Shown: piece by piece, positions 9,901-39,032 of the stretch | How the letters are laid out: every line of letters begins with the position of its first letter | Position numbering within the stretch: the first letter of the stretch is position 1 | DNA from: Ectocarpus siliculosus | Taxonomy: Eukaryota; Sar; Phaeophyceae; Ectocarpales; Ectocarpaceae | DNA: 64,000 nucleotides | Direction: 5' to 3' | Assembly: GCA_000310025.1 (NCBI GenBank) | Contig: FN649730.1 | Span: 1,266,701 to 1,330,700, forward strand | The notes under the pieces: model-generated | Seen by the model: only the letters and a program-made list of their open reading frames with translations | Database searches by the model: none | Told to the model about the DNA's origin: nothing | Made by a program: the position numbers and the translations under genes

Positions 9901-12900
9901 TGGTCGGAGAGACAGCGCGAACAGACAAAAAAACAATGTGTTCTTCGTCAACACACAGGGGAGGGTTGTGGGATAGAATATGCGGCGCAGTACTCGTCGT
10001 TCGTTGCTACTTCATGCGGGAACTGGCTATTGCTTGCTGTACAGAATGGGACCAAAGTGATGGATAGATATCACCACCAAGAAAGAGAAGAGGCGTGCAA
10101 TCTCATCGATTCCCGTAAGTGTTACTCAATGATGACGATTCACGCATGTGACATTCACATGTGACATTCATATGGATGTTTATTGTTTTTCTTTCGAATT
10201 GCCTTGATTAATATTTTCTGTGGCCTACGGAGGGAGACTTCCCCCGTACCACACGTCCCGCACGGCACAAAGCCTCCGCAGTATCCTAACGTCTCTTCTA
10301 CTAAACAAAAATCTCCCTCCGAGTACCACCAGACGGGACGAAACTGTTGTACAGTAGCAGTCTCGGACGATTGAGCCTCCCAATGGTCGCGACGTTTCAC
10401 ACGTGCATTTTTGTAGTGAGTTGAAATTTTCACACCGAGTTCCATACGGAAGTTTCACACACGTGATGTCCATCGGGATGTTTCACACACGTACCGATGT
10501 TCACACGTGCGATCTTCATGGGGACGTTTCACACAAGCATTTCTCCGACGAGCGTTTCACAAATTCCATGGTCACAGGGACGTTTCACACATGAATACTC
10601 ATAGGGACCATAAACACAACCGATGTTCATATGGAGTGCTAGGATTAGATTGCGAACGTTCACACACACCTATTGGATAGCGGGTTCTACGCAGAAGATC
10701 GTACGTGTTACACATGCGAGCCTTCACTTGGGGCACTGACCTACAATAACAACAACAACAACAACAACAACGAATAATACACACCTCCGTCGTTGTAGGC
10801 AAAGTTGTTGGAGAAGGTCGTGTTGCCTCGGGTGCGCACGGCCGCGCCCTCCGTCACCATGACAGCACCTTTTCGGTGCAGAGGGGGAAACGAGGGGCGA
10901 GGGGGGGGGTCAGAATTTGATAACACAAGAATCCGCGCGTAGGAATGCAAGACATGTCTCGGGCTGCTAAACGATGCTCGCCAATGCCGATAAGATGTCG
11001 AAGACACATGACTATTGGGTGGCGTGGGGGGGGGGGGGCGTACTCATGTGCATGCCTTAGTTGGTAGATCATTGAACATATGCCGTAGTCGCTAGACCAT
11101 TGACCTCGCATCCCTACAATGCCGGGACGGAGCGACATGCCGGGTGTTCGCTGGCCCAGGCATTGCTCATCATCCTTCCGTTTGGGTGTGCCAAACCAGA
11201 TTTGCCATGGGTTGATTGGGCATCTGGGCTAACCAGACGTTTCACACTCGGCAGGGGTTGGACAAGACAAAAATACATCAGACAGCGAACGCCTGAAATA
11301 TTTTAACCCTCGCGGCCGCCGTAACGCTGGGGGCGTTTCGCTCGGGACCTAGTCCGCCGTAGCTTCGTCACAGCCAGCGCCGCGCATTAATCTCCAACGA
11401 ATATGTCGACGCCACGATAGCACAACCGCAAGGGCGACCCCCAACACACGTTAACACCCGTCTTTATTAACACTCAGGCGCTCCATCCCACTCGAACCTC
11501 ACCGCCGTAGTTCTGCGAGGTGTTTTCGATGAAAGAAGTGGCCCCGGTAATGACCACCTCTGACCCGTTGAAGGCCCACACGGCGCCCCCGCTGTTCCCC
11601 GCCTCGTTGCCGATGAACCACGTAGCCCCCCCCGTCCGCACGGTGCAAGACCGCTCCAGATGAACGGCACCTGCATCACGGAGAGGCACGAGATGGATGG
11701 GACAAACTCGGCGGTTACCTCTACACGGCGGGGATTCTTGTTTGGCGGTGGGGTTTGTTTTCTTGTTGGTGGGCCGGTGCTGCGCAACGGTATCCTTGGG
11801 TTTGGTGTGTTTTGAAACATTCGTTGAGCGACAACAAAAAGTAGACTGGCATTTGCGCAACCACGACGGGCGAAATGACACATCAGAAAACGCAGCACGT
11901 GGTTGATCTCCACACCTCCTTCAAGCTGCGCGGTGTTGATCGAGAGAGACTTAAGCCACAGTAACTCGGACCCCCACACTACAATAACCTCTATTGGTTG
12001 CCTCAAAACAAGTGGAGGCGGTTGCCCACAACAAGAGTTCGTACACTATCTACGAAAGCGGCGCGTTCCCCAGCAGCTGGGAGCCGACGAGGAGTCACAA
12101 CATTTTCGAAATAAGACTTGAAGAACGCAAGCAAGCTCCACTGTTTAAGAAAATGGTACCATCTGGTGAAGATTTCTGCAGAGGCTCGATCGAGGGGTTT
12201 GAGCTTGGCTTGATCTCACCTCCTTCAAACTGTGCGGAGTTGCTAGAGAGAGACACGAACCCGTCCCCGAAGGTCACGTCGGAGCTGTCTTGGGTGTGGA
12301 TGGCACCTGGCCAAAAAATTAGAAAGAGCGCGATGACAGCGAAACCAGCGTATCGGCAGGCGGCCCAATAATACACAAACCCACGTCGATATTTCTTAAG
12401 AGAAAGCGACCACATGGAACGAGCCAGAATTGTTTCCGTGCTGGCAACAAGATAGACATCTTAGCTGTCGTCATGATATGAACGTAAGAAGAGACTTGAA
12501 TAACGTAAAGTTCCAGAAATCAACCATACTTGGAACAAGATACGCATCGGTTGCATGCGGTTCAAGAATTCAACTGTACTAGCAACATCGGTGACCGTAG
12601 ATAAAATCCTCATCATAGTAAGACACCAATGGAAATTTCTAGAGTTTTAACCATGCCCGCAACAAGATGCACGCCGAATACAGTCTTGTTTTCGCTACAT
12701 ACGTGGTGCATGCCATCGGTGCGGGGTCGAGCGAGATACTGCATTCAGACCGAATGGAGCGTCCCCCTCCTCATCGAACGTTGCATACAGAAGCCTAGCC
12801 GAGGAACGGTGGTTATCATGGCGTGACAATCATAGTGGAAACGGGCCCTCGATTCACTCGGCTATTGTTGGCGCGAGCGGGCAGAATCAGAGGCGACAAT

Positions 12901-15900
12901 GCACGAACTTCAACATGCAACGGGAGGAATGCCCCCACCCACCCCCAAAACGTACCGGCACACATACAACGGGTCGACCTATGAGTTTTTTCGCTGAATG
13001 ATTCCCCCGATATGTGTCCCATCAACACAAAGGGGTTAGGCAGGGCGGACGGTGGGCAAAGGACGGAAGACCCTCGCCACACGGACACCAGTTTCGTAAC
13101 GGGCGTTGCAAACCAGAGCTGGCGTTTCACATACAAATACCATTAAAGAAGCGAGTCTATGTGAAAGGACAGACACCGTCTAACCCGGGCGGAGTTGGCG
13201 GTTCATCCGCGCACGTACCGTTGACGAAGCAAGACTACTGCTGCTGCGTAAAAGAATAGCGCACCTCCTAGCCGGGCGGCGTTGCCGTGGAAGGTGTTGG
13301 TCGTGCCATCTTGGGTGGTTACAGTTGAGGCGTCCTGGGCGTGCACGGCACCTGTGCGGGTTTCGTGGATGGAAGGGTTGAAAGCGCGGTTGGTGTGGTG
13401 CTCGTGGTGTGGTTGTCGTTGCTACGGCAGCTGTCGCGATGGTCGTGATACGCCAGGTGCCAGATTGCCACGCGAGGGCGGGGCCTAGGTGCTTATCGCA
13501 CTCGAGAGGCGAGAAAGCCGCTACGGCGCAAAACCGGGTTCAAACTAACGCCAGCCATCTTGCTGCTTCTCTGCGCGGTGTCACTCATCATGTTGGAGAC
13601 GTTGCCAACGCCGCTCGCTGCCGTCATCTTGTTCATCCGAAAAACACCTTCCTAACATCACGCCTCTTTGCAGTGCCTTTTGTCGCCTCTGATCCGGGAA
13701 CCAAATACAACGAAACGGGTCCCTCCCGCGAGAGTATAGCGCAGCACAACCCCCCCTCCGAGAAAACAAAACTCTGCCAGATTCGCCCGCTTCGTTTGCC
13801 GTCATTGTCGTCCACACGCACTCGTGCTCCCCCAACCATTTACAGATGCAGCTAGGGGGACCAACCAAAAATCATCGAGAAGACGTCAAAGACAAACAAC
13901 ACGTCGGGTTCAATCTCCCCTTTCGGGACTCTAGATGCGCGGGGGTAGGGCAGGTATCGCTCGCATTCGGAGCGGCAACACACATGAACAGGCCTCTCCC
14001 TCCCCCAAGCCACGTTCGAACCGAAATCCCGACCGACGGAGCCGGCCAGGCCTCAAGATCTAAAAAAGGCTTTGTTTCTAGATTGCTCCATCTGGGGACC
14101 GTGACTTGAAGCCTTTGCCCTTCACCATCTTCTGTTCAATTCAAGTCTTGGAAAACGACGTCATCCTGCACTCGTTAGCTCTTCGTGTTTTTTAGCCACC
14201 AACGTCGATTTCTATTATTTCTCAATGATGGGCGGGAGGAGCGGCTGCAGCAATTCTCGAGTGTTTGGCCCCGTTTCTGCACTCCAAATCGAACGCGCAC
14301 CTCCATATATGTCCGCGGAGTTGCCCGTGAAGTTTGCCCCTCCGGCGTTTAAGGTTGAGCCCCCTTCCAGATAGACGGCACCTGTCGTTCGGGGTCCCAG
14401 CGTGAGGCATGCAGTGCACGAGACGGGCCGGGTGTCAATCTCGAGAGAGTATCATGTTCGAGGAGCCATCAATAGCCATCAGTAGCAACAAGGGTCACAC
14501 GATGTTGTTGTTGTCGTCGTCGTCATCGTCGTCATCGTTGTGGTGGTTGTCGTTGTTGTTGCTGTTGTTGGTGGTGTCAAAACTTTGGCAGCAAATACCA
14601 CTTTCTTTCGCCAGCCACACGCTTACTGCTTCCAATACTGGATACACACTTCAACCAAAAGCAATGGCCCGGACCGTCCTTGTACTTTGCTCTCCACAAT
14701 CAACCGTCTATCGGAGTGTGCATCTACAGTAACCCCCCCCCATCTCACTCCGCGAAACGCGCACATAAATGAATGATCAAGACTCTCTCTCCTTGGGGGG
14801 TAAAACGTGTCTGTTGTTCAGGCGGACAGCGGTGTCATACATATGCGCGGTCGTAAATTCTGACGTTTCCGTCGGCGGCGTGCAAAGGGGCCACTCACGG
14901 CCGAGGGGGGGCGCCAAGTACTTGCGATGGATGAGCGCGAAGCGTCTTTTTTTATCGTCAAGAACGTGTTCCCTTGTGTACGAACAAGAGGCCGAATCGA
15001 GACGAGAAGCTGGTAGGTTTTGGCGAGAGGATGGCTACTTGTCCGCAGAGCGATATCGAGACGAGACTAAGCCGTGTCGCTGTCGGCGCGAAAAGGCGCA
15101 ACGCGGCAAACATGCGCCTGCTCTACAACGTGATAGAACGTAACACTGTCAGCCAACGTATGCGTCCGAGAACCAGCAAGCTCCAGGCTTGTCGCGGCGG
15201 TGGGACCAATATCATGGGTCTCTGTTCTTTTTCAGCTGGTCGGCCGTTCTCGCTTTCTTTCGCGACAAACACGCCACCGCGGGGGCAAAAGCTGCAACGC
15301 ACCAGAAGCGACGAACGCAGCACGAAGAACAACCATTTTCTGCGACACATGTGCGATCTTTTTCCTAACCAGCCAGCAAGCGGTGGGGGGCGCGTAGTGA
15401 GGCTGCTGCGCGGCTGCATATTGGGCCGACATCCAACGATGAAAAACTAACTCAAGATCGGCGCATGGGGGTTGCAACCCAAACAAATCATCGGGGGTTG
15501 GTTGCGAAAACGACCGGTAGGGCTTTGCATGCAACACAGCCCTCGCACGGGCGTCCCACCTTATGGTAACAGGAATTTTCTTGACTCTGCTGTCAACCAT
15601 AATGGGAGAAACACATGGGAGACCCTGTGGCATTAACCCGAAAGCGTCATTGATTGTCATTTCTTTCCGTGGAACACACAGCAACTTCGCCTTCACAGCT
15701 GCTGAGGGCGGGGAATGGTACAAACATATTATCGTTTTGTAACGTTGAAATACTTCCATACGAGGCGACGACCTTACGATTTCGTTCGACAAGAAAGGGT
15801 TGAAACTGCAAGACGCAGTCTCTTTAATATTAACCCCAGTCTATCAACCTAACAATGTAAGGGTCAATCTGGTACACAACAAGCACCCCAACTTGAACCA

Positions 15901-17943
15901 AAATAAAAAAAAAATACGTTTGTCGTCGTGAACACATATCCGCATGTGGGTGCGTGGGTGGGTTGGCGATCATTGGCCGAAGCTGGTGGGAATTACATGT
16001 AAGATACGTCTGCATGATATGAACAAAAAATCCTTGTTTCTTTGAATTTGCAGGTTGGGGCAAACCGCCAGCAAACATGTTATCTCACCTTTTGGGGAGA
16101 CACGAGCAACCGATCTGAAAGCTATACACCACACCGTGTGTTCCTGTGCGTTCATCATGCGCGCGTCGCCGCAAGCGTAGCTGCACATGCGGGCTAACCT
16201 TGTTTGCGAGTGCTGCAGCAGCTGGCGTGCTGCGTTGCCTTCTCCGGCTGTCTGACGCACTACAAGGAAGATCCGGTCCATTGGTGCTTGGTTTTCCGCA
16301 TTTACCCACCACGCATTGATATTGCCCATCTAGGACATCCCGTGCTCGTACTCCTTCAGAAAACCGTCAAAGTCTTGGAGCTTTGTCTAACGAAGGCTGA
16401 TACGGCCAGACAACCCATTCACCCACCCCGCTCTGAGCGCGCCGGTTGATGCAGGCAGCAAGCGTTATCGCGTGCTTGTGTCGGTTGCGCTCTCTGCTCT
16501 GTCTCAACCTCTCGAATTGGGAAGATCCAGGCTATTGGTGAATTTCACGCTGTGGCATCGGTTATTCGTGCCAGAAAACAGTGCTAGATGGTCGCACCAA
16601 TCAAGTTGTACGAATGTACCGTATACGACACAAGTTAACACCCCCCCTAGAACCGATTTTCAAGCTCGATTACGCCACGACGAAGAGGGTGCATATACGA
16701 AATGAAACGTTTTCGGAAAGCTCTCGACGAGACGGCTTAACGCCGCCGTCTTCGGCGCTGTGACTCTTCCTGCTGATGAGAAATCTAACTTTGAAAATCG
16801 GTCCAGGGGGTGTGTTATCTTGTGTCGTATACCTCCCTTTGCGCAGGACTTTCTTGCTCCCCCTCTGTAGATATGTTCAAACCCGTTTATATAATAAGCT
16901 ATTTTTGGGTTCAAAGCACCTGTACAGAAGACGATGGTGCTTTGCCGCAACCCCCCACCCATGAAATACTGCTGTGAACAACGCTCCTCTCCGAGAGAAG
17001 CTTCGAATAGTGTTCTTAAAAGTATTGTCTCGTTCCCTGGACAGGGCAGGTATCAACAGGTAGAGACAGCTGTTAGCTGTCTATGTGCCGTGGGATCAAA
17101 ATCGTTTCGTTCCAAATAGTCTAAATGCGTCGCGTTGCTTTTGTTCCGAGCGCGAATATATACGGATTGAATTGCCAAGATTGCCGGCACCGTTCGCCGT
17201 TCGTTGTTTATGGTACCTCCTACCACTGCTGCTATGCATACACGTGACATCTCCACAGTATAGGTAGTGAAGAATAGTGCTCGCCATACACCACAGGCCA
17301 AGAGGAAGAGGACCAGGGTGTGGCGAAACAACATGTTGACACATTTCTATTTCCGCCCCTCTGCCGCCTCGCATATTGTCCTCTCACACCACCACGACGA
17401 GCAGCGGGATCCCTTGGCATGAAGAAATTCGGTACAATTCTGTCCTCACTCACCTCCCTTCGATGCTGCCCTGTTGCCGTAGACATCGCAGTCCACCAGC
17501 GTCACCGACGATCCTCCCACCGCTGTCACCGCCCCTCCATCAACTCCATATCCCCCCGTGAGGCCAACGCTCTCTAGGTATAGCACAGACAGCTCGGACG
17601 CAACGAAGAGGCTGACCTCCCCTCCCCCATTCGCCACGGACTCCTCCTTGCTCTCTCCGGTTATCCTCAGAATCGTCGCGTTCGTCAGCTGCAGCGGTTG
17701 GCTGAGACCGATGGTCCCTCGCCAGTACACGTTGAACTCGAGCCCGGGGCATGCGGTCAGGTCTGCACCCAGAGTCAAGGCGTGGTCAGCCGTCGAGACT
17801 ACGCGGGCGTCTTGTGTTAAGCTGCCGCAGTAGACATCCGCGCTGCTCGAAGCTTGTTGGGCGAGAGCCCCGGAAAGGAAGCCAGTAGAGACGCACAGCA
17901 GTAGTCTCAACACCACCAGCACGGCAGTCGCTGCTGCGCCCAT
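564..17943 (-). CDS. Gene B: secreted beta-helix (Pmp-like) repeat protein, 3' end off the window
   Basis: This is the second of two tandem paralogues. Exons seen (high to low): 17455-17943, 14301-14381, 13265-13351, 12220-12306, 11503-11670, 10785-10868, 9787-9870, 9343-9423, 8791-8874, 8333-8448, 564-912. All junctions are phase-consistent: 1 throughout the rung exons, 0 between 8333-8448 and 564-912. The ATG at 17943 is chosen because it opens a clear signal peptide (MGAAATAVLVVLRLLLCV...) ending near ALA-QQ; an open frame runs further upstream but is Ala/His-rich. The protein then carries repeated rungs of the form GA[IV]...FxxN.A...GG, the motif pair of chlamydial polymorphic membrane proteins and other right-handed beta-helices. 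By analogy with gene A the missing C-terminus should be a multi-pass membrane domain. It is probably a cell-surface adhesion or sensing protein; the function is inferred, not shown. Confidence 0.82.
1278..1400 (+). repeat. Dispersed repeat R1, short copy
   Basis: This copy has the R1 head: a G-run, GTACTCATAGTCGTGCATGC, a tRNA A-box-like GTAGTCGGTAGACC, and the CGGGACGGAGCACGCCGGG block. It lies in the large intron of gene B. Confidence 0.65.
1462..1520 (+). repeat. Dispersed repeat R2, degenerate copy
   Basis: It contains TAGCCGGTTAGCTCGGTCGA followed by an A-rich tail, matching the R2 consensus TCAGCCGGTTAGCGCGGTCG. Confidence 0.5.
1655..1713 (+). repeat. Dispersed repeat R2, left part, split by the retroelement
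   Basis: The sequence CATTGGTCAGCCGGTTAGCG followed by ...GACTAAT is R2. Its expected A-rich continuation (TGAA.AACA.ACAC) is found at 8156-8180, on the far side of the tyrosine-recombinase element. This indicates that the element inserted into this R2 copy. Confidence 0.65.
1714..1972 (+). repeat. Split direct repeat A1
   Basis: This 259-bp copy matches 7586-7844, with one visible mismatch (GGGGATGTC here, GGGGGTGTC there). Confidence 0.85.
3062..4791 (+). repeat. Satellite array of about 22 hairpin units with a ~250-bp higher-order period
   Basis: The core unit is CAGCACGGG, a 21-base spacer (ACGCGCCAATGAGTGGAAGC plus A), then CCCGTGCTG: a 9-bp inverted repeat around a conserved loop. Three cores alternate with distinct linkers to make a higher-order unit of about 250 bp, repeated about four times between roughly 3160 and 4170. 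After that the order becomes irregular. About 22 cores are counted by the GTGG..GCAC landmark. Any open frames through the array follow from the repeat. Confidence 0.88.
5111..6058 (+). mobile_element. Gag-like region of the tyrosine-recombinase element, with CCCH zinc knuckle
   Basis: This Arg/Ala/Pro-rich coding region contains a short coiled-coil-like stretch (LRGLVDGLREELQRKRDEA) near 5435-5490. At 5831-5887 it has a CCCH-type zinc knuckle (CFAFNSSSGCHDRNCPHIH). A basic or structural region with a zinc knuckle upstream of a recombinase fits the nucleic-acid-binding gag position of such elements. The assignment rests on position and motif only. Confidence 0.5.
6152..7306 (+). mobile_element. 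Tyrosine recombinase/integrase domain of the element
   Basis: An open stretch of 384 codons has a SAM-like core-binding N-terminus (SSRRTYTSGFNSWCTF) and the catalytic C-terminal signature of tyrosine recombinases. The H-x-x-R motif is HSLRIGGATAL at about 7091-7123, followed by GKWRSDAY with the Trp of the H/W position and a Tyr nucleophile region YKPYARNN at about 7188-7211. This spacing is typical of DIRS/Ngaro and Crypton enzymes. The domain looks whole. The split repeats around it favour a retroelement over a Crypton. Confidence 0.8.
7348..7586 (+). repeat. Split direct repeat B1
   Basis: This 239-bp copy is identical by eye to 7917-8155. It abuts A2 directly, giving the B1-A2-B2 right end. 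Confidence 0.85.
7586..7844 (+). repeat. Split direct repeat A2
   Basis: This is the second copy of A1 (259 bp), joined directly to B1. Confidence 0.85.
7917..8155 (+). repeat. Split direct repeat B2 (right end of element)
   Basis: This is the second copy of B1. The match stops at 8155, where host sequence resumes with TGAAGAACATACACAC, the expected tail of the R2 repeat that begins at 1655. Confidence 0.85.
8223..8305 (+). repeat. Dispersed repeat R2
   Basis: It contains CATTGGTCAGCCGGTTAGCG, then CGGTCGATGCTAATATGAAA and an ACAC-rich tail. It is one of the best copies and lies just upstream of a gene B exon. Confidence 0.65.
8333..8448 (-). CDS. Gene B exon 10: one full rung plus start of the next
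   Basis: The acceptor is CATCAG|GC (phase 1) and the donor is CAG|GTGCGG (phase 0). It encodes GAIRLSFAASVSITG then FHDNSAPDGSGGAIFCSSVPQ, so one GG-AI junction here has no intron. It joins in frame to 564-912 across the intron holding the retroelement. Confidence 0.8.
8791..8874 (-). CDS. Gene B exon 9: single beta-helix rung (84 bp)
   Basis: Phase 1-1 mini-exon encoding GAVYADTGVTVALSG, then YENNSASSNGG. The acceptor is CACAG|GT and the donor is GGAG|GTGTGC. Confidence 0.88.
9343..9423 (-). CDS. Gene B exon 8: single rung (81 bp)
   Basis: Phase 1-1 mini-exon encoding GAINAYDDVIITTVG, then FVGNTAEEGG. The acceptor is GCTAG|GG and the donor is GGAG|GTGACG. Confidence 0.85.
9787..9870 (-). 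CDS. Gene B exon 7: single rung (84 bp)
   Basis: Phase 1-1 mini-exon encoding GAIQSEFSCRVQIAG, then FSNNTVGNFGG. The acceptor is GCCAG|GC and the donor is GGAG|GTACAC. Confidence 0.87.
10140..10640. repeat. Degenerate tandem repeat with GGGACGTTTCACACA cores
   Basis: Roughly 30-bp units share a core close to GGGACGTTTCACACACG, separated by variable TCATGG/ATTCATATGG stretches. About ten partial copies occur in the intron between exons 9787-9870 and 10785-10868 of gene B. No coding signal is seen. Confidence 0.6.
10785..10868 (-). CDS. Gene B exon 6: single rung (84 bp)
   Basis: Phase 1-1 mini-exon encoding GAVMVTEGAAVRTRG, then FSNNFAYNDGG. The acceptor is AAAAG|GT and the donor is GGAG|GTGTGT. 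Confidence 0.88.
11027..11260 (+). repeat. Dispersed repeat R1, partly duplicated head
   Basis: A G-run is followed by CGTACTCATGTGCATGCC and two consecutive versions of the tRNA-like head, then the GCCGGGACGGAGC block and a GATTTGCCATGGGTTGATTG tail. That tail is shared with the inverted copies at 327-475 and 55320-55620. Confidence 0.65.
11503..11670 (-). CDS. Gene B exon 5: double rung (168 bp)
   Basis: The exon is exactly two 84-bp units, phase 1-1. It encodes GAVHLERSCTVRTGG, FIGNEAGNSGGAVWAFNG, then FIENTSQNYGG. The internal GGAV is uninterrupted, unlike the intron-split GG-AV elsewhere. The donor is GGCG|GTGAGG and the acceptor is GCAG|GT. Confidence 0.88.
11916..11994 (-). pseudogene. 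Relic rung exon, partial duplicate of exon 12220-12306
   Basis: The 3' half reads SLSINTAQLEGG with a GGAG|GTGTGG donor. This closely parallels SLSSNSAQFEGG with a GGAG|GTGAGA donor in the neighbouring exon. The 5' half lacks the GA[IV] start, and a phase-1 entry would hit a stop, so it cannot splice like the other rungs. It looks like a local duplicate that has lost its acceptor. A phase-0 exon from an AG at about 11995 cannot be excluded. Confidence 0.5.
12220..12306 (-). CDS. Gene B exon 4: single rung (87 bp)
   Basis: Phase 1-1 mini-exon encoding GAIHTQDSSDVTFGDG, then SLSSNSAQFEGG. The donor is GGAG|GTGAGA. Confidence 0.88.
13265..13351 (-). CDS. Gene B exon 3: single rung (87 bp)
   Basis: Phase 1-1 mini-exon encoding GAVHAQDASTVTTQDG, then FHGNAARLGG. 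The acceptor is CACAG|GT and the donor is GGAG|GTGCGC. Confidence 0.88.
14301..14381 (-). CDS. Gene B exon 2: single rung (81 bp)
   Basis: Phase 1-1 mini-exon encoding GAVYLEGGSTLNAGG, then FTGNSADIYGG. The acceptor is GACAG|GT and the donor is GGAG|GTGCGC. The intron to exon 1 is about 3 kb. I found no further rung exon in it, only a MITE and low-complexity sequence. Confidence 0.87.
16617..16832. mobile_element. MITE copy 1 with ~40-bp terminal inverted repeats
   Basis: The left end, GTATACGACACAAGTTAACA, is inverted at the right end as TGTTATCTTGTGTCGTATAC, and the pairing continues through CCGATTTTCAA. The interior (GAAAGCTCTCGACGAGACGG, GGCGCTGTGACTCTTCCTGC) matches a second copy at 62195-62415. 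No coding capacity is present. It lies in intron 1 of gene B. Confidence 0.8.
17455..17943 (-). CDS. Gene B exon 1: signal peptide and N-terminal cap
   Basis: This exon encodes the signal peptide and an N-terminal domain (CPGLEFNVYWRGTIGLSQPL, TNATILRITG, YLESVGLTGGYGVDGGAV, VTLVDCDVYGN). It ends GGAG|GTGAGT in phase 1. It matches gene A exons 1 and 2 fused: gene A has an intron after LKIT, and gene B has none at that point. Confidence 0.88.
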
Positions 17944-21354: not shown

Positions 21355-21439
<85 letters not shown>

Positions 21440-22506: not shown

Positions 22507-22598
<92 letters not shown>

Positions 22599-23361: not shown

Positions 23362-23407
<46 letters not shown>

Positions 23408-32400: not shown

Positions 32401-33221
32401 TCGAAGGAGGTCCAGGGTTTACCCAAAAGGAAAGCGTTTTGAACGTGGGAAGGCGGCCAGGGTGGTCATTTCGGGCGCTCTCGCCCGTGAAGCGCCTACA
32501 CCGAAGTTTTTTTATGCCAATGGTATACTGTCAGCTGTTCTAGGTGTCTGCGACCAATGCTTTACCAACAATATTCACTATATTCTCACCGTGACACACC
32601 GTTGTTGTGAAATACCAAGGCAGGCTTCAACCCTTCAAGGGATTCGTGGCGTGTGGCACCTTAAAAGAAGCACGCGCGGCTCTACTGAAGCCCTGCCGTT
32701 GGTACGAAGATCCTCAAGAACGTCGTGGGATCGGTTTGCTCGCAATGGATTCGTGTGCGCGCCACATGCGTAGGTACGTTACAGACGGAGCTAGAGTGAG
32801 CGTTCACTAGCGGTACTAACCTCAACAAGAGTATTCTCAACGGGACTCACCGCCGAACTGTGCCCTGTTACCGACGAAGCGAGAGTTCCCTGTCGTCTTG
32901 AGTTTGGCTCTGTCGGACGCGTGTATTGCTCCTGTTCAAACGACGCCACGCGCTGTGGAAATGAGCGAACGACCGCAAGTCATTCTTGAACGCATCCGGG
33001 TGGAAGTCCCGCAGCATTTTCCCCCAACCCATATCCCTGGCGTGGGCTTTACACCACGGCTATGTTCCGTCCAAGGGAAAAAACGCGATTTGATTCGAAG
33101 GCCCTCTTCGGAGGTTGGTCTGACTCATCTGCGTTTGTGGTTCAATTCATACTGTACGTCTTGATTGTTTCGCGTAAGTGGTGCCGCAGCGGTCGTTGTC
33201 GTTGTCTTCGTTGTTAGTCGG

Positions 33222-33260: not shown

Positions 33261-36200
33261 GGTAGTGGTGGTGGTAGTGGTGGTGGTGGTGGTGTCTTGC
33301 ATGGTGATTTCCGAGTGAAATTGTTCTTGCTTCACCTCCGTTACTTCCTGCCACGTTCTCATCGAAGACCACGTCGTCCATGAGATACACGTAGCTTTCT
33401 TCCATCGCCTGAATGCCCCCTGCAGGCGCAAGCACGAGCGCCGAAAAAAGGTTTCGAGTGAAATCACTTCGTGATAATAAAAAGCACGTTGTTGTTGGTA
33501 CTTCCACAAATTCACAGGACACCTGCAAGGCGTTAACGTATTTCACATACTTATTATTACGGCGATCGGACATTCCGGGGGCAGCGTTTCGCGAATGATG
33601 CCATTGTGATTGAAACGAAACGCCGAGTCAGTCGGCTCACGCTTCTGGAGCAAGGTCCACGCCTCGGCAGCGTGTTCCTTGTCGGGGACTGCCCTCAAGT
33701 TTCTCTCCCATCATGCGTCGAAGAAGGCCGTTTGTCGCCGATGGGGGAGACAAACCCCGGGGTTAAGAGATAATGGGGGGGCATTCATCCTTTCCTTGTG
33801 ATACGTTGGGCTATTGGTACACACTATTATCAGAGGGTCGACGCGGTATGGACATAATACATGGAGCTGTGTAACATCGAGATAGTGCCATGAGATTGCT
33901 CGAGAAAACGCCCCCCAGGCCGAAGTCTTGCCCCCTTCTGTGGATTACCCGCCGCTGTCATGGCAATGGAATTGAGTGTGTGCGTGTCCTCATGATCGTC
34001 CATGCCGTAGTCATTAGATCATTGGACTCCCATCCCTACAACGCCGGGACGGAGCTCGCCGGGATCTCACCGGACCAGGTTCTCACATAACAAGGCGGGA
34101 AGAGTCGTGAGGTATTCGACGAGCCGCACGAACGGTGCGCTGCATCCTGCTAAGGATGTCCGGCATCTTGTGCTTACTTCCTTGCATACGGATGACAGCT
34201 GCGCATGACTTAATTTATTTTCTGGTGCTTTCACTTCCAGAGACAGTTAGTGTAAGCACTGTGTAACTGCTTCAAGGGTGCTTGACCGACTTAACGCAAC
34301 GTTGTACAGGCATCCCCTTTCCGCGCAGTGAGCGTTCTCGACCCCGCACAACATGGTGTTCCCGACCAACATAATGGCTACCGAAAAGAGAACAAACGAA
34401 AAAATAGCGGTAACCTGGTTGTCGGGCTCACAAAGCGACCGGCGTTTTTGTTCAACGCCGTTGCCAAGTGACCAAAACCAAACCCGAAAACTCCTCAGGG
34501 TGTCCTTAATGTTGCTCCTCTCGATTCTAAGTGTCTGCCCGCTTAATATCGATGTTCTATTCGTCTCCATTGCTCCTGTTAGGTCCTCCATCCGAAACTA
34601 TATTGTAATGAATATAGACCTGTGGTGACTCTTGGACCTTTCAGACTGAACTGGACAATTACTCGCAACCAAAGGGCAAAATCCTCGGCGCGGACATTTA
34701 CTACTGTCAGCACTGCCTGAAGCGACAAAAAATCTGCGCATGTTCTACGTAGTTTCGTCCTTTAACGACGTATAAATTTAGGTTAGGCTCAAAGTCGTTG
34801 GAAGCGTCGCAACAAGAAACCCCCGAAACCGCTGCGACAGCTCTCACTCGAAACCTTTAGCGAACCGTGTACCTGCAGTCTACACGGTGAAACTAGAGAA
34901 AAAACATGCACAAGTAACCACCATCAACGCGTGTCACACCTTCACCACCACCAATCGGCGCACAGCAGGATCCGAGCACCTACCTCCGTGGTGCTCGGCA
35001 GTGTTCCTCGAAAACGTCGTGTTTCCCGCCACCCGAAGGCCTGACCTCTCGCACACCATGATAGCGCCTGCTGTCCGAAGGCCGGGGGCGAGCTTCAACG
35101 CTATGTTTGGGTACACTGCTGGCAATTTTCCGGAATCGTTTCGTTGATTGTGTGCTGGCCCCCTACTCGACGTTGAGGTACGCCCGTGACCGGCCACCTA
35201 ACTCCGAAATCTCTTATAGCTTGGGTCACCGTACCCTACTCGGCGTCTGGGTATGTTGGCGTCCCTAGCTATTGCTGCCGCGAGGGGGGCAGGAAGCGTT
35301 GCCGGCTGAAGACGGGCGTTAATGACTACATCGCGAAGCAGTACCGAAATCAAGAAACAAAAGGGAGGTGCCCCCTGGGTGTAGAATATTTCCATCGGGG
35401 GGTTCAGAATCCAGCACGATCATCGTTGATACCCCTGTTTCTTTATTGTGATATTTCGGAAAGGTTCTTGTGGAACTGCCCAGCCCGTGTGATAATTACC
35501 ACGAGGCAAAGCATCCCGTGAACCATGTGGTTCGTACTATTTATCGGGGAACGGCGGCACGGGTGGTGGGTGGTACAAGGCGAACCGCCGCTATCCGCGG
35601 TAAGCGCATACCTTGTGTTTGGAAAAGAGTGCGGCCGAAATGACCAAACTTTCAAATGACCATACTTTCGATTGTAGTCAGCGTCACCGTCCGAACTGGC
35701 ACCTTAGACGTATTTTTCAGCACGTCTCAAACGACGAGACTCTTACCGCCGTGGTGTTTGGATTCGTTGTCGACGAACGAAGTGAATCCATCGTTGGTCG
35801 TTACCGTTGAACCCCGTCGGGCGTAGATCGCACCTGGATTGGAAAAAAAAAGGACAGAGAAGACGAACAGGCTTGAGAAGGCTCCTGGCGTGTGTGGACT
35901 GCAGGTGGTGGGATAGGATATTCCACAGGCCGAGACAACATATGAACTACGCCAGAAACAGCGGGGGGGGGGGGCTACGTAGATCGTAGCATTTCGATCC
36001 ACGGCACAACCTACAGTAGACAACAAACTCATAATTTGATACTCGGCGGCCACTGCAGCTGCTTTGGTTGGCCCTCTGCTGGCTTAGCGCACGTGACACA
36101 CAAGCTGCACAGAAAAACACGCTCACAAGCAATGGAATCAACAACACTGACAGCACACCTCCGTCGGCTTTGGCCTTGTTGCCGGCGAACGTCACAGATC

Positions 36201-36328
36201 CGTTGATGTCGACTTGGCTGCTGTCCTCGACAAAGATGGCACCTGTAATTGTGTTTGTCGTGGTCGTCGTCATCGTGGTCGTGGTCGTCGTTTTTGTTGT
36301 TGTTGTAGTTGTTGTAGTGTTGTTGTTG

Positions 36329-36360
<32 letters not shown>

Positions 36361-39032
36361 GGTGGTGTTGTTGTTGGTGTTGTTGTTGTTGTTGTTGTCG
36401 TTGTTGTTCTTATTGTTGTCGCAGTTGCAGTTGTTTTCGTTATTTTTGTTGTTTTTGACGAAATCGCCGAAATCCTACCAACAACAGGTGGTTCCGTCAG
36501 GACTTCAAAGCCTCTCGGTTTTCGTGCGCGCGCTGACTTTGCGCCCCGATCAGAAATCAACATTCGGCGGCCGAAGCGAAGGGAAATGGTGACCGTCTTG
36601 CCCACGCACTCACTCACCTCCAGATTTTGCTGCGTTTTCCCGAAAAACGTTGTCGAAGCTGCCCTCTTCTGTTGTCACCGTAGAGTTAACGGAGACGAAC
36701 ACCGCGCCTGCCCGGTGCGGCACGAGCACAAATTACAATCCGCCGCGAAGAAGAGGAAGGGTGGAGTATTATTCTCGGGTTCATGGGGGCTATCCTTAGA
36801 GGTGTTGTTCTCCACCGTTGCGCACTGCAGCAACGCGTTTCACACAAGAATGAATCGAAGTACCGCAGTCCCGCTCTTCCTCCTACGCGATTGTTCTAAG
36901 GCACGAAAACTTGCCTCCATACTTGTCCGCGCTGTTGTCTACGAAGCCGGTCCCGCCAGTGACGAGCCGAGACTCTTGAAGGAAAATCGCACCTGAAGTT
37001 TGTTTCGCAGCGAGAAACGCACGTGGTAAAAATGAGGAATGTTTTCGGTCGTGATGATCTTCCTGCGGGTCCTCCTGCGCCAGCCGACGATTCCGACTGC
37101 TAGTGCTGGTGCTGGTGCTGGTGCTGGTGCTGCTGGTGCTTCGACTGTGCACATGCTCAAACGGGAGTCCTTAAATGCGGGGAAGCTCGCGTGGACGGAC
37201 TGATATGAAAGGCGAATGGGCACGCGCCCTACAGAAGTAGAGACTCGCCCCCCCCCCCCCCCCCCCTGCTCGACCGCTTTCCACGTCAGCCCATTTGTTC
37301 TAAACCATGTTCGCGGAAAAACGGTCCAAAATCGTGTTCCGGAAGTACAGCGTGTAGGTGGATGCGAATGTAGCGACGGTAATGCATACCTCCGGAGAAT
37401 TGTTTGCTGTTTCGCTTCAAAGCAAGCTGCTGTGCATTGGTGCCTTCCGTTCGGGTCAAGAGAAATAGTTTGTACATAATTGTCTGGCGCATCTTAATTT
37501 TCTTATGAACGCCTGAATGTAGGCCGCGCGTTCTCTACGTGCAAAGAGAGACGCTCAAGGACCTTCGGAACTCGTGCAAGACGTGAATAATTGGCCACAC
37601 CCCCAACCCGCTCATCAACCGGACCGATTCCGACACGATAAACTCCCGCTTCCTTCCGTCTGGTAGGCACGAGAAGGTAGTTGGCGGCTACGGCGATGCA
37701 TGCTTTGCGCTTTGCGGGTACAAAAGTCTCTCGCTCAACCCCTCTCACCTCCCACGTTGGACACGGCATTCCCATACACCTCGCAGTCGATCAGCGTAAC
37801 CGAAGCGTTCTGGTAAGCTGCCACGACCCCCCCGCGCAGCCCCCCTCCACCCGTCAGAGACACGCCTTCTAACCACAGCGACGACTGGGAATCTTCCACG
37901 AAGAACATCGGGGTAGACAAGGACCCGTCCCCATCCACGACGTTCGCGCCATCAAAGGTAGCCGAGCCCTGTCGGCAACAGGACAGTGGCGAGTTGTGTA
38001 GAGAGGGCGTCACGCTTTCGGAGCTGGCCTTCAGAACGACCGTTCGCTTAGGGAAGGATATCGGTGCAGTGTTTTCTTCGGAATCCGCCACAGAAGTAAC
38101 CCTCTCTGAGATCTCTCGAAGACCCCATCCCAATTACCAGTAACCCCACACGTGAAGGTTAAGCCCAAACTCTGAACGAAGCCAGTGCCGCGTGATGGTT
38201 GTTATCGATGCACACCGTAACCGAAGGAACCGCCGCCAATATGATATCCTGACGTAGTTTTCATTGACGCTTTCCAGAGCGGCAAACATCATCCGTCAAC
38301 ACCAACCAACGGGTAAAGATAGGCTTACTCGACGATGTGGTGATCTGCCGTGCGATCCGGTCGCCGAACACTATAACGCCTGGTCGACATGGCCTACGCA
38401 ACTTTTTAATCGTAAGGCTCGACATGTTCTTCTCATCTCCAACTATTCGCAGAATGATGAGGTTGTTCTTCAAGCACAACAGCACACACTCAGATTCCAA
38501 CTTCGGCATTTGAGCCTTATCCCCTAGCACAAGGCAAGACTCCACGTGTCAATGTCAGCTTGTTCGAGTTGTACTCCACCCCGGGATCACGTTGTAGGTA
38601 TATGCACAACCCTACAACCCTCTTGGGAGACGACGTTCAATCTTGACATACCGTGATCTTGAGTGACGTGCCGGCCACAACGTCCAGCGGCTGCGTGATC
38701 CGGACATGGCCCATCCACTCGACCTCGAAGCTCGCCCCTGGGCAGTCCAGAATATCTTCCCCGAGGAGGGTAGCTTCGTCGGTGTTCGAGACCACCCGCC
38801 ATACTACGCAAACGGGGTCGATTGTGACCACCGTGGTGTCATTGCTGCTGGTCGTCGTGTCGTTGCTGCTAGTTGTGGTGTTGCTGCTGCTGCTGCCTGT
38901 GGTGTCGTTGACGCCATTTGTGGCGGTGCTGTCAATGAGGCCGCCGCTGCTTCTGCTCCCTCGTTGGCTGTACGTACCCGGTGGCGCCACCAGAAGAAAG
39001 AAGAGAAGGACGTGCAAGAGGAGAGGATGCAT
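19921..39032 (-). CDS. Gene A: beta-helix (Pmp-like) ectodomain fused to TRP-like multi-pass membrane domain
   Basis: The model is a complete, phase-consistent gene. Exons (high to low): 38652-39032, 37749-37968, 36915-36992, 36618-36707, 36159-36242, 35747-35833, 34984-35067, (34432-34575 damaged), 33336-33419, 32851-32931, 32157-32240, 31260-31408, 29695-29770, 28702-28758, 27857-28044, 26847-26967, 26042-26188, 25332-25513, 24359-24475, 23874-24003, 23160-23606, 21918-22126, 21069-21320, 19921-20622. The protein has a signal peptide (MHPLLLHVLLFFLLVAPPG), at least twelve rungs, a Cys-rich stretch, about eight or nine membrane helices and a roughly 205-residue cytoplasmic tail. This layout matches the 'polymorphic outer membrane protein homolog' family I associate with brown algal and oomycete genomes. 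It is probably a plasma-membrane sensor, channel-like or adhesion protein (inference). The ATG at 39032 is preferred over one at 39098 because it starts the signal peptide directly. Confidence 0.85.
21069..21320 (-). CDS. Gene A exon: membrane helices of the TRP-like domain
   Basis: Phase 0-0. It encodes VIECFRRIALTGFAVFIYP, then AQIAIVLLLAVVFMVVSEIL and a further helix ending ALLLRVDVSDEGDQSQG. It is the best-conserved segment of the C-terminal membrane domain in this stramenopile family. The donor is GGG|GTGAGA. Confidence 0.88.
21354..21455. repeat. Compound GA / GACA / CA microsatellite
   Basis: About 65 bp of (GA)n, then GACA units, then (AC)n, in a gene A intron 30 bases upstream of the acceptor of exon 21069-21320 in the gene's sense. 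On the coding strand it forms a long pyrimidine tract. Confidence 0.9.
21918..22126 (-). CDS. Gene A exon: membrane helix FKIYAALMTFVYPVGIP
   Basis: Phase 1 to 0. The helix FKIYAALMTFVYPVGIPFAL is followed by a loop ending LWGPYRPERYYYE, joined in frame to VIECFRR. The acceptor is GGCAG|GC and the donor is GAG|GTGAGT. Confidence 0.87.
22382..22412 (-). repeat. R2 fragment, inverted
   Basis: CGCTAACCGGCTGACCAGCG is the reverse complement of the R2 core. Confidence 0.45.
22509..22596. repeat. GA microsatellite
   Basis: More than 40 GA units in a gene A intron. On the coding strand it is a CT tract. Confidence 0.92.
23160..23606 (-). CDS. Gene A exon: two membrane helices flanking a polyglutamine loop
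   Basis: Phase 1-1, with donor T|GTGAGT. It encodes a helix (IGPVVMVGVLSCTYLLALRR), a loop with a run of about 25 glutamines broken by one Lys, and a second helix (HLSVALLLVFVVYPTVSHTI) followed by the family motif FVCDTLDDGKSYLRADYSLD. The glutamine run is encoded by a mixed CAA/CAG tract at about 23346-23425. Confidence 0.87.
23874..24003 (-). CDS. Gene A exon: loop and membrane helix
   Basis: Phase 0-1. It encodes FSDVADVQYPSPLSQLLSAV then NLDVGFVLSFACVYQTSFYH. The donor is C|GTGAGT. Confidence 0.83.
24290..24358 (+). repeat. Dispersed repeat R2
   Basis: It contains ACAAGACTGACATCTTTTCA, TTGGTCAGCC and CGATCGATGCTAATGAGCAA with an ACAC tail. It abuts the donor of the next exon. Confidence 0.6.
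24359..24475 (-). CDS. Gene A exon: helix AAFKIVVVMWQIVTQ
   Basis: Phase 0-0 (39 codons), starting NQPSMLTQQLVGAWQQRVWQ and ending FKIVVVMWQIVTQ. The donor is CAG|GTGTGC. Confidence 0.83.
24595..24975. repeat. CCCATGGG-rich palindromic repeat element
   Basis: At 24600-24665 a 12-bp unit GACACCCATGGG is tandemly repeated. At 24895-24975 related GCCCATGGG, CCAATGGGCC and CAACCATGGG motifs recur. Between them lie a duplicated TCAACCTAGAAC(T/G)TxGCCACC motif and the telomere-like run at 24788-24820. This looks like a small foldback-type element in a gene A intron. Confidence 0.6.
25332..25513 (-). CDS. Gene A exon: Cys-rich end and first long membrane helix
   Basis: Phase 1-0. It encodes CAVCTESYAPGYRHVCKSC, an EGF/granulin-like Cys pattern. 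A strong helix follows (VALMAIAITAFAVVLLLLLG), then WLVSVVEPSLDAK. The donor is AAG|GTATCA. This marks the ectodomain-membrane boundary. Confidence 0.86.
25935..26025 (-). repeat. Dispersed repeat R1, inverted short copy
   Basis: CTGGTCCGGTGAAAACCCGG, GCTCCGTCCCGG and GGATGCGAGGTCAACGGTC give the R1 reverse complement. It ends 17 bp before the donor side of a gene A exon. Confidence 0.65.
26042..26188 (-). CDS. Gene A exon: Cys-rich juxtamembrane segment
   Basis: Phase 1-1. It encodes VETLVIQPGFYRLSNTSTD, then CFNEKACQGG and a stretch ending EYCADGYTGP. The pattern GxC..GY.GP..C is completed by the next exon. Confidence 0.85.
26847..26967 (-). CDS. Gene A exon: Cys-rich segment VCSRCAGACG
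   Basis: Phase 0-1. It encodes VCSRCAGACGSQLQAGTTL then CEPAPFGSVIPSRG. The donor is GAGAG|GTATGT. Two other in-frame acceptors exist (after CTCCAG downstream); this one keeps the paired cysteines. Confidence 0.7.
27655..27692 (-). repeat. Telomere-like interstitial motif
   Basis: CCCTAACCGTAACCCTAACA preceded by ATTTCGTGTCCCTGTCCCTA. The same motif occurs in the opposite orientation at 32322-32358. Confidence 0.6.
27857..28044 (-). CDS. Gene A exon: last rungs and transition to Cys-rich region
   Basis: Phase 1-0. It encodes GALVHAGVITEMSSTVFEGN, then VLSLGIVESMTGVAFQENGF and YCPVGTYCREVSIVP. The YCPxGTYC motif opens the Cys-rich zone. The acceptor is TGGAG|GA and has a weak pyrimidine tract; the donor is CCG|GTGAGC. 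Confidence 0.78.
28076..28235 (+). repeat. Dispersed repeat R1
   Basis: A G-run is followed by TGTACTCATGGAAACGCATG, the tRNA-like head and GCCGGGACGAGGCG. The tail shares CCTTGC and TTCACAAGGATGA with other R1 copies. Confidence 0.65.
28239..28620 (+). repeat. Dispersed repeat R1, long copy
   Basis: It runs from a G-run through the tRNA-like head and on through CACCGTGAGGTATTCGGCGA, GGATGACAGCTGCGAAATAC and GGGACAGTTTCGATCACTGT to CCCCGCACAACAT. The order is the same as in the copies at 33990 and 43758. Confidence 0.75.
28702..28758 (-). CDS. Gene A exon: short rung segment (57 bp)
   Basis: Phase 1-1. It encodes SIAEYDIVRDCTFIGNRAG. Joined to its neighbours it gives a continuous LEDGGAMYSIAEYD and NRAGGALVHAG. 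The donor is GCAG|GTAATG. Short but phase-perfect. Confidence 0.72.
29695..29770 (-). CDS. Gene A exon: rung FLGCHFEDNLALEDGGAM
   Basis: Phase 0-1. It encodes VVATPVEFLGCHFEDNLALE then DGGAM, with donor T|GTGAGT. It is a close match to the end of gene B exon 564-912. The acceptor CAGAG|GT is inferred; a Ser/Thr-rich stretch upstream could also be coding. Confidence 0.72.
31260..31408 (-). CDS. Gene A exon: rung plus start of next
   Basis: Phase 1-0. It encodes GAVYLVNAMVKFKGKNFDFW, then YNNALEGSGGAIYVGSVSRL and RIKDVVFFRN, with an uninterrupted GGAI. The acceptor is CTCAG|GT and the donor is AAT|GTGAGA. Its phase fits exon 29695-29770. Confidence 0.8.
32157..32240 (-). CDS. Gene A exon: single rung (84 bp)
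   Basis: Phase 1-1 mini-exon encoding GAIHGRQEASASLGG, then LTNNTASYDGG. The acceptor is CCAG|GG and the donor is GGAG|GTCAGG. Confidence 0.87.
32322..32358 (+). repeat. Telomere-like interstitial motif
   Basis: GGGTTGGGGGTTAGGGTTAG followed by GGATAGGGATACGAAAT. It is the inverse of the motif at 27655 and resembles that at 24788-24820. Confidence 0.6.
32851..32931 (-). CDS. Gene A exon: single rung (81 bp)
   Basis: Phase 1-1 mini-exon encoding GAIHASDRAKLKTTG, then FVGNRAQFGG. The acceptor is ACAG|GA and the donor is GGCG|GTGAGT. Confidence 0.88.
33215..33297. repeat. GTT then TGG trinucleotide microsatellite
   Basis: About twelve GTT units followed by GGT-type units in a gene A intron just downstream of the donor of exon 33336-33419. 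Confidence 0.88.
33336..33419 (-). CDS. Gene A exon: single rung (84 bp)
   Basis: Phase 1-1 mini-exon encoding GIQAMEESYVYLMDD, then FDENVAGSNGG. The acceptor is GCAG|GG and the donor is GGAG|GTGAAG. Confidence 0.87.
33990..34485 (+). repeat. Dispersed repeat R1, longest form
   Basis: This roughly 0.5-kb copy is collinear with 43758-44265. It extends past CCCCGCACAACAT into CGGTAACCTGGTTGTCGGGC and AAACCAAACCCGAAAA. Its 3' end overlaps the damaged gene A rung exon at 34432-34575. Confidence 0.72.
34432..34575 (-). pseudogene. Gene A rung exon interrupted by an R1 repeat
   Basis: It opens like a rung with ACAG|GA (GAMETNRTSILSGQT) and runs for about 26 codons. It then enters sequence shared with the end of the R1 repeat, so the FxxN.A..GG half is missing. 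A donor T|GTGAGC at 34431 lies inside the repeat and is phase 1, so the frame could still pass through, giving one rung with a foreign 3' half. Skipping it also keeps frame. Confidence 0.5.
34984..35067 (-). CDS. Gene A exon: single rung (84 bp)
   Basis: Phase 1-1 mini-exon encoding GAIMVCERSGLRVAG, then FSRNTAEHHGG. The acceptor is AGCAG|GC and the donor is GGAG|GTAGGT. Confidence 0.88.
35747..35833 (-). CDS. Gene A exon: single rung (87 bp)
   Basis: Phase 1-1 mini-exon encoding GAIYARRGSTVTTNDG, then FVDNESKHHGG. The acceptor is CCAG|GT and the donor is GGCG|GTAAGA. Confidence 0.88.
36159..36242 (-). CDS. Gene A exon: single rung (84 bp)
   Basis: Phase 1-1 mini-exon encoding GAIFVEDSSQVDING, then FAGNKAKADGG. 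The acceptor is TACAG|GT and the donor is GGAG|GTGTGC. Confidence 0.9.
36250..36425. repeat. GTT/GGT trinucleotide-rich tract
   Basis: Long GTT, GTC and GGT runs in the intron immediately upstream, in the gene's sense, of exon 36159-36242. Long open frames here come from the repeat. Confidence 0.85.
36618..36707 (-). CDS. Gene A exon: single rung (90 bp)
   Basis: Phase 1-1 mini-exon encoding GAVFVSVNSTVTTEEG, then FRENAAKSGG. The acceptor is GGCAG|GC and the donor is GGAG|GTGAGT. Confidence 0.88.
36915..36992 (-). CDS. Gene A exon: single rung (78 bp) with a GC donor
   Basis: Phase 1-1 mini-exon encoding GAIFLQESRLVTGG, then FVDNSADKYGG. The acceptor is TTCAG|GT. The donor is GGAG|GCAAGT, a GC-AG intron matching the strong GC donor consensus; no GT lies at the required position. 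Confidence 0.85.
37249..37266. repeat. Poly-C tract
   Basis: An unbroken run of cytosines in the intron after gene A exon 2. Runs like this recur next to R1 copies, but no R1 is seen here. Confidence 0.8.
37749..37968 (-). CDS. Gene A exon 2: N-terminal cap and first rungs
   Basis: Phase 0-1. It encodes GSATFDGANVVDGDGSL, FFVEDSQSSLWLEGVSLTGG and VTLIDCEVYGN, ending GGAG|GTGAGA. It matches the second half of gene B exon 1. Confidence 0.87.
38652..39032 (-). CDS. Gene A exon 1: signal peptide, Thr/Asn/Ser linker, N-terminal cap
   Basis: The signal peptide ends near GTYS-QR. A linker follows with several N-x-T/S sequons (SSNDTTTSSNDTT), then VWRVVSNTDEATLLGEDILD and CPGASFEVEWMGHVRITQPL, ending LKIT|GTATGT in phase 0. 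Gene B aligns through CPG...F.V.W.G.....QPL. Confidence 0.88.

What the first reader, a model, noticed from the sequence alone, without database searches (positions are those of the whole stretch)
11503..36992. One beta-helix rung equals one phase-1 mini-exon, split inside the GG-A-[IV] motif
Across genes A and B, fifteen exons of 78, 81, 84, 87 or 90 bp each encode exactly one rung. Each starts in phase 1 with the last two bases of a Gly codon followed by Ala-[IV], and ends after Gly-G. The intron always falls inside the second Gly of GGA[IV], the signature tetrapeptide of Pmp-type repeats. This is seen directly from the splice sites. Established knowledge: symmetric 1-1 exons are the classic substrate for exon duplication and shuffling. 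Inference: the ectodomain grew by mini-exon duplication.
Basis: partly seen in the sequence, partly recalled or inferred. Interest (0 to 1): 0.82.

Follow-up and report, generated by a model that had tools for sequence, protein, structure and literature searches.

The report
One exon per protein helix turn
In a brown-alga genome, a few predicted cell-surface protein genes carry each turn of a spiral protein on its own small exon, yet the spiral does not seem to have grown lately by copying those exons, since the freshly copied turns found here are in sister genes that lack such exons.

Summary
Genes A and B (minus strand) contain 15 exons of 78-90 bp, all phase 1-1, all cutting the second Gly of GG-[AG]-[IV], each one Pmp-type (PF02415) rung long. 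The scan gives 19 matches, 15 of them these exons; 200 shuffles average 0.065. A collinear copy, gene C, outside the window keeps the edges: 7 comparable exons 66-91% identical, 13 of 14 flanks 38-59%. "Always" is too strong: one exon holds two rungs and several GGA junctions are uninterrupted.

The inference (growth by mini-exon duplication) is not supported for the time that A, B and C record. They are collinear rung by rung; A's rungs are no closer to each other than to other genes' rungs (0.376 vs 0.373); introns of one gene do not match, bar one repeat. Two dead half-rung copies lie in introns. Identical rung pairs occur in 2 of 10 unsplit paralogues tested. On a tree of the shared membrane domain the four resolved split genes need one change from 18 unsplit. 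Introns added to an existing array at its recurring GGA|GG site fits best; ancient exon duplication is not excluded. No transcripts were available.

The parts
17454..17943 (-). Gene A exon 1: ATG, hydrophobic N-terminus (signal-like by eye), cap, first rung; ends phase 1 GGAG|gtgagt
14301..14381 (-). A mini-exon, 81 bp, GAVYLEGGSTLNAGGANFTGNSADIYG
   Evidence: edge conserved in gene C
13265..13351 (-). A mini-exon, 87 bp
   Evidence: edge conserved in gene C
12220..12306 (-). A mini-exon, 87 bp; its 3' end plus donor is copied as a relic in the next intron
11503..11670 (-). A two-rung exon, 168 bp, uninterrupted GGGGGCGCC between the rungs; 91% identical to its gene C counterpart, with 83% identity in the 60 bp downstream
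10785..10868 (-). A mini-exon, 84 bp
   Evidence: edge conserved in gene C
9787..9870 (-). A mini-exon, 84 bp (counterpart not found in gene C, whose sequence has a run of N in that intron)
9343..9423 (-). A mini-exon, 81 bp (counterpart not found in gene C, whose sequence has a run of N in that intron)
8791..8874 (-). A mini-exon, 84 bp
   Evidence: edge conserved in gene C
8333..8448 (-). A exon of one and a half rungs, phase 1 to 0, uninterrupted GGA inside
564..912 (-). A downstream exon with rung-like sequence after a 7.4-kb intron (edges read by eye); gene A continues left of the window, with a membrane-domain fragment at L031:624-878 beyond a run of N
38652..39032 (-). Gene B exon 1: ATG, hydrophobic N-terminus, Ser/Thr-rich stretch, start of cap
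   Evidence: 3' edge read by eye
37749..37968 (-). Gene B exon 2: cap and first rung (GGV), ends phase 1
   Evidence: edges read by eye
36915..36992 (-). B mini-exon, 78 bp, GC donor
36618..36707 (-). B mini-exon, 90 bp
36159..36242 (-). B mini-exon, 84 bp
35747..35833 (-). B mini-exon, 87 bp (single rung opposite the two-rung exon of A and C)
34984..35067 (-). B mini-exon, 84 bp
33336..33419 (-). B mini-exon, 84 bp, GG-G-I instead of GG-A-[IV]
32851..32931 (-). B mini-exon, 81 bp
32157..32240 (-). B mini-exon, 84 bp
31260..31408 (-). B exon of one and a half rungs, phase 1 to 0, uninterrupted GGA inside; its 3' intron lies 11 codons from that of A (by eye)
20000..30850 (-). Gene B remainder: further rung-like exons, Cys-rich module (about 25330-25520), multi-pass membrane domain in several exons, acidic tail; edges approximate
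11903..11950 (-). Relic of the 3' half of mini-exon 12220-12306 with its donor, inside the following intron (83% over 48 bp; position computed from the hit)

Best explanation
Genes A, B and C encode predicted cell-surface, multi-pass membrane proteins: signal-like N-terminus, a Pmp-type beta-helix of about a dozen rungs, a Cys-rich module, a membrane domain whose relatives weakly resemble TRP-type channels, an acidic tail (A's and C's ends are only partly seen). They belong to a family of 36 loci by my grouping in this brown-alga genome. In one branch (A, B, C, D, C14a) the helix is cut by phase-1 introns at turn T4, inside GGA|GG. Shown: the split pattern, its conservation, and that the array has kept its order in A, B and C. 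Inferred: the introns were added to an already repetitive coding array at its recurring GGAG|G site, whose glycine codons supply the exonic donor context, while other members stayed unsplit and lengthen by in-frame duplication of rungs. Because each mini-exon is symmetric, skipping one would shorten the helix by one rung without a frameshift; whether the alga uses this is unknown.
For: PF02415 match. Rung order shared by A, B and C. Introns of one gene unrelated. Within-gene rung identity equals between-gene identity. 15 paralogous ORFs with 6-30 uninterrupted GGA junctions each, 234 in all, 135 of 219 spacings at 26-30 aa. Membrane-domain tree of 27 rows: the six-row group with B, C, D, C14a, C455 and C21 has 96/93 support, the other 19 rows 92/88, with two C6 rows as outgroup; with C14a labelled correctly, split and unsplit need one change, also when the C6 rows are called unsplit. 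Mini-exons in D (108, 87, 84 bp) and C14a (81, 81, 81, 78 bp). Unsplit genes do not look like plain retrocopies: in 19 of 21 loci examined (17 of them unsplit) both parts were found, and in all 19 stop codons separate the Cys module from the membrane domain, which I read as an intron. Introns turn over in this branch: B and C share one membrane-domain intron and differ in others (B near query residues 48 and 127, C near 80), while D, C14a, C455 and C21 match without a break; A and B differ by 11 codons in one rung intron. First Gly codon is GGA at 21 of 25 interrupted junctions of A, B and C, at 73 of 234 in unsplit genes (p 4e-7) and at 2 of 11 uninterrupted junctions of the same genes (A and C are not independent).
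Against: Many separate insertions at one equivalent site are needed unless one inserted intron was spread by exon duplication or gene conversion. Mini-exon number differs between deeper paralogues (B 8, D at least 3, C14a at least 4), which exon gain or loss explains as well. The GGA excess is also what selection on donors would give once introns exist. The root is uncertain: the C6 rows sit on a long branch, their ectodomains were not read (nearby rung matches are weak, in frames of 468-544 aa), and their membrane domain is itself broken into pieces. In the first tree run C14a was labelled unsplit, and a test of B+C+D alone as one clade was rejected (p 0.00017); C14a and C21 fall among them. 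The branch that unites C14a, C21, B and C is weak (77/78). Ectodomains of C455 and C21 were not resolved, and only 27 rows of the family were in the tree.
Confidence: 0.5

Rival explanations
1. One reading: one phase-1 rung exon duplicated many times in the common ancestor of A, B, C, D and C14a, then the array froze; the unsplit branch lost its rung introns.
For: Identical intron position and phase at the split junctions; mini-exon number differs between A/B/C, D and C14a; partial exon-plus-donor duplications have occurred, as relics in A and C introns; one repeat per exon with shuffling is published for brown-algal ROCO LRRs (72 bp, phase 2; PMC11378527, sections 11 and 15 read).
Against: No intron or rung similarity left inside a gene beyond the background; unsplit genes keep a 3' intron while lacking rung introns, the opposite of 3'-biased loss through a cDNA (the bias is recalled knowledge); identical rung copies were seen in unsplit genes only (2 of 10 tested).
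Confidence: 0.33
2. Exon skipping of symmetric rung exons makes many ectodomain lengths from one gene, as proposed for ROCO LRR exons; this use keeps the exons separate. (Not exclusive of the other readings.)
For: All 15 exons are symmetric and rung-sized; splice variants with different LRR exon content are reported for ROCO genes (PMC11378527, abstract and section 11).
Against: No transcript data here; conserved rung order and dN/dS near 0.25 between A and C give no sign of shuffling.
Confidence: 0.2
3. The mini-exons are chance or a gene-model artefact.
For: No cDNA; one GC donor and one GG-G-I.
Against: 19 pattern matches, 15 of them the mini-exons, against a shuffle mean of 0.065; conservation of edges, frame and codon structure between A and C.
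Confidence: 0.02

Closest known systems
Brown-algal ROCO (LRR) and NB-TPR genes with one repeat per exon (PMC11378527, abstract and sections 11 and 15 read; Zambounis et al. 2012 and Teng et al. 2023 known only as cited there; a look-up of the 2012 paper by a recalled DOI failed)
   Same: Brown alga; one structural repeat per short symmetric exon, same phase throughout an array; a recognition role has been proposed.
   Different: LRR exons are 72 bp and phase 2, here 78-90 bp and phase 1; beta-helix rungs on a predicted cell-surface protein; no sign of shuffling in A, B and C; unsplit sister genes in the same genome.
Chlamydial Pmp repeat region, PF02415 (PMC10715098, passages and section 9 read; PMC11166332, passages read)
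   Same: GGA[IVL] and FxxN once per rung of about 28 residues. In 8 of 10 comparable rung pairs of A and C (the identical pair and the last one left out) 19 of 42 residues between FxxN and GGA differ, against 2 of 24 in GA[IV]; Pmps carry their variable loops there.
   Different: A multi-pass membrane domain in place of the autotransporter barrel; introns.
PF06011 TRP (transient receptor potential channel)
   Same: 5 of 10 membrane domains scanned match the same part of the profile, best 25.6 bits, E 7e-6.
   Different: All five are below the curated cut-off of 28.5; D and C14a, the two scanned from the split branch, do not match (D, C14a); A, B and C were not scanned.
Intron gain by tandem duplication of an AGGT-containing segment (PMC4974935, passages read)
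   Same: A repeated exonic segment carrying AGGT can supply both splice sites.
   Different: Not shown here; proposed only as a possible origin.

Membership tests
PF02415 Chlam_PMP repeat protein | Score over the curated cut-off | tested here: met
   101.3 and 92.5 bits against 20.6 for the A and B rung arrays, introns removed
PF02415 Chlam_PMP repeat protein | GGA[IVL] and FxxN-like motif alternating at rung spacing | tested here: met
   the first residue of FxxN varies in some rungs
Chlamydial Pmp autotransporter | C-terminal outer-membrane beta-barrel | tested here: not met
   Gene B ends in a Cys module, hydrophobic segments and an acidic tail, read by eye; 10 relatives' C-terminal domains give no barrel family in Pfam
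PF06011 TRP channel | Score over the curated cut-off | tested here: not met
   5 of 10 domains match, best 25.6 against 28.5 bits
Beta-helix fold | Three-dimensional structure | not tested
   No structure job was run; the fold is inferred from published Pmp models
One-repeat-per-exon gene of the ROCO/NB-TPR kind | Each repeat on its own exon, same phase | tested here: met
   15 exons, phase 1-1; exceptions listed in the observation check
One-repeat-per-exon gene of the ROCO/NB-TPR kind | Signs of exon shuffling between genes or within a gene | tested here: not met
   A, B and C only; D and C14a could not be placed against them
One-repeat-per-exon gene of the ROCO/NB-TPR kind | Alternative splicing of repeat exons | not testable with these tools
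   no transcripts

The most novel reading that the evidence does not exclude
The rung array is a ready-made intron nursery: each GGA-GG[TC] boundary is an AG|G site, so splicing from one boundary to another drops whole rungs in frame, and duplicated rungs can decay into introns. One-repeat-one-exon genes would then arise from repeats becoming introns, not from exons being copied. The unsplit and split branches in one genome would be the before and after, and the half-rung relics in A and C introns would be late stages.
Probability: 0.12. Interest if true: 0.8.

Novelty: new variant of a known kind. Interest (0 to 1): 0.52.

Why it matters
Exact agreement of exon and protein repeat is usually read as evidence that exon duplication built the protein. 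Here one genome holds split and unsplit members of one family, and the identical rung copies found so far are in unsplit members. That makes 'exon copying or introns added later' directly testable with other brown-alga genomes, and bears on how the published LRR and TPR cases should be read.

Tried and rejected
PF02415 searched directly over the genome gave no match at E 0.001; I put this down to the short 19-position model in a 189-Mb search. A rung alignment could not be used on this genome. C455 (sister of D, 70% identical membrane domain): no rung above 4 bits in the 10 kb held, none convincing by tblastn, and a stop in its membrane frame, so possibly a broken copy. Rung order of D and C14a against A and B: scores too low to place. 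Membrane domain against solved structures: no match up to E 1; against NCBIfam: two families, 1-2 of 10 members, E 0.03 or worse. phmmer of the A array against solved structures: one weak match, E 0.014. Literature: no held paper has both 'Ectocarpus' and 'Chlam_PMP' or 'polymorphic membrane protein'; 'brown alga' with 'polymorphic outer membrane protein' gave one paper (listing and start of abstract seen). Other searches.

Slips that do not touch the mini-exons: and 72 gene B's exon 2 was entered 2 bases too long at its 5' edge, and exon 31260-31408 one base short; one search failed and was rerun; one search read the Cys exon in the wrong frame and was not used. Rows dropped before counts: one search left out three near-copies (L009, L011, L016) of 15 loci, used only rungs of 24-31 aa, and reported the 10 loci with 6 or more rungs; one search left out A (85 columns) of 28 rows; loci for which no sequence was held are not in the tree.

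Full report
What was checked. The window is 64 kb of contig C5 of a 189-Mb, 492-contig genome. 150 matches to the EsV-1-7 motif, a lower bound (150 of 880 candidates scored), point to a brown alga; that this family is expanded in brown algae is recalled knowledge. No tool names the organism.

The exons. On the minus strand 15 exons of 78-90 bp run from phase 1 to phase 1, start with the last two bases of a Gly codon and end GGNG|. Seven are in gene A (8791-14381), eight in gene B (32157-36992). The scan gives 19 matches on the minus strand, these 15 plus 4 rungs with one edge inside an exon; the plus strand has one match, without FxxN; 200 shuffles average 0.065, maximum 1. The rung arrays of A and B, introns removed, score 101.3 and 92.5 bits against PF02415.

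Do the edges hold without cDNA? Gene C, about 16 kb to the right of the window on the plus strand, is a copy of A with the same order of exons. In seven comparable exons identity is 66-91%. Of the 14 flanks of 60 bp, 13 are at 38-59% and one, downstream of the two-rung exon, at 83%. Over the joined coding sequence dN is 0.19 and dS 0.75. Two rung exons of A have no counterpart in the C sequence held; a run of N lies in that intron. Interrupted junctions of A, B and C use GGA as first Gly codon in 21 of 25 cases, unsplit genes in 73 of 234, uninterrupted junctions of A, B and C in 2 of 11, one of the 11 not being in a rung.

Exceptions. One exon carries two rungs (11503-11670); rung 1 sits inside a larger exon; exons 8333-8448, 31260-31408 and 564-912 cross GGA junctions without an intron. 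One mini-exon has GG-G-I and one a GC donor. In published Pmp models GGA forms turn T4 and packs against the FxxN of the same rung (PMC10715098, passages read). The exon edge at GGA therefore puts the two motifs of a rung into neighbouring exons: the exon is one period long but not one structural rung.

Did mini-exon duplication build it? Paired by eye with one gap, A and B align rung by rung: permutation p at its floor of 5e-5, 8 of 11 A rungs best with their partner; A and C 10 of 10; B and C 6 of 9. Mean identity among A's rungs is 0.376 and to rungs of 12 unsplit loci 0.373; for B 0.343 and 0.355. Adjacent rungs are slightly closer than others in A (0.393 vs 0.355) and not in B (0.345 vs 0.347). 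Introns within a gene do not match each other at E 1e-5; matches between genes are a repeat element and the start of the intron after the two-rung exon. A laxer comparison gives one 62-bp repeat match between introns 1 and 2 of C, and repeats within one C intron. Two partial duplications exist: 48 bp of the end of exon 12220-12306 with its donor inside the next intron of A (83%), and 44 bp of the end of C's exon 90623-90706 with its donor inside the next intron of C (89%). Both copies are incomplete; by eye the C copy has a stop codon.

The family. The Cys module and membrane domain of B give 62 matches in the genome (E up to 1), 36 loci at E 0.001 or better by my grouping, gene A not among them. 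Fifteen rung-bearing ORFs, some of them near-copies, were read: each crosses 6-30 GGA junctions without an intron, 234 in all, 135 of 219 spacings at 26-30 aa. Only about 3.2 kb of each was held, so introns elsewhere in their ectodomains are possible. Among 10 of them tested, rung pairs identical at 100% occur in two, C351 and C201. Gene D on C17 has mini-exons of 108, 87 and 84 bp, C14a has 81, 81, 81 and 78 bp. Of 10 membrane domains scanned, 5 resemble PF06011 (TRP channels) over the same stretch, best E 7e-6, all below the cut-off; D and C14a do not.

The tree. Of 28 membrane-domain rows 27 were used. They fall into two C6 rows, a group of six (B, C, D, C14a, C455, C21; 96/93) and a group of 19 (92/88), of which 18 are unsplit and one unresolved. 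In that run C14a was labelled unsplit; later calls show mini-exons. With that mended, split against unsplit needs one change, also with the C6 rows called unsplit. The test of B+C+D alone as a clade was rejected (p 0.00017); C14a and C21 lie among them. In 19 of 21 loci examined both Cys module and membrane domain were found, and in all 19 stop codons lie between them, so the 17 unsplit ones among them seem to keep an intron there and are not plain retrocopies. B and C share one membrane-domain intron and differ in others, while D, C14a, C455 and C21 match without a break; the C6 rows are broken too, at other places as far as the hits show. This favours intron addition in the split branch, with moderate confidence.

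How it probably works. A beta-helix on the outer side of a multi-pass membrane protein, with most variation between FxxN and GGA (19 of 42 residues differ between A and C, against 2 of 24 in GA[IV], in 8 of 10 comparable rung pairs), suggests an adhesion or recognition surface, perhaps coupled to a channel-like membrane part; this is inference. Symmetric exons would allow in-frame loss of single rungs; untested.

Against what is known. One repeat per exon is published for brown-algal ROCO LRRs (72 bp, phase 2, with shuffling and splice variants; PMC11378527, abstract and sections 11 and 15) and, as cited there, NB-TPR genes. The rung version is a new variant of that kind with a different history: order kept in the split genes A, B and C, identical copies in unsplit ones.

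Noticed in passing
window 11503-11670 and gene C 85913-86080 (window numbering continued into L034): The second rung of the two-rung exon is identical in protein between A and C, and similarity runs on into the intron start (83% over 60 bp), unlike the other exons compared: probably a gene-conversion tract between inverted copies.
   Followed up: partly
window 6152-7306 (+), within a 7.4-kb intron of gene A: A 384-aa ORF that by eye resembles a tyrosine recombinase (recalled impression; no Pfam match up to E 0.01), near duplicated stretches and a minisatellite: a mobile-element-like insertion.
   Followed up: partly
genome-wide, loci: A membrane domain of about 300 residues shared by the family resembles PF06011 TRP channels weakly in 5 of 10 members (best E 7e-6, below cut-off): a possible Pmp-helix plus channel-like architecture.
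   Followed up: partly
L019 (C351) and L021 (C201): Unsplit ectodomains with identical rung pairs; C351 carries repeated blocks of several rungs in one long open frame (by eye).
   Followed up: partly
window 56776-61406 (-): Neighbouring ORFs with weak tetratricopeptide-repeat matches; of four scanned, one passes a Pfam cut-off (TPR_2, 27.5 bits).
   Followed up: no
L068 / L053 (C455): Closest relative of gene D in the membrane domain has a stop codon in frame and no rungs found in 10 kb: perhaps a broken copy.
   Followed up: partly
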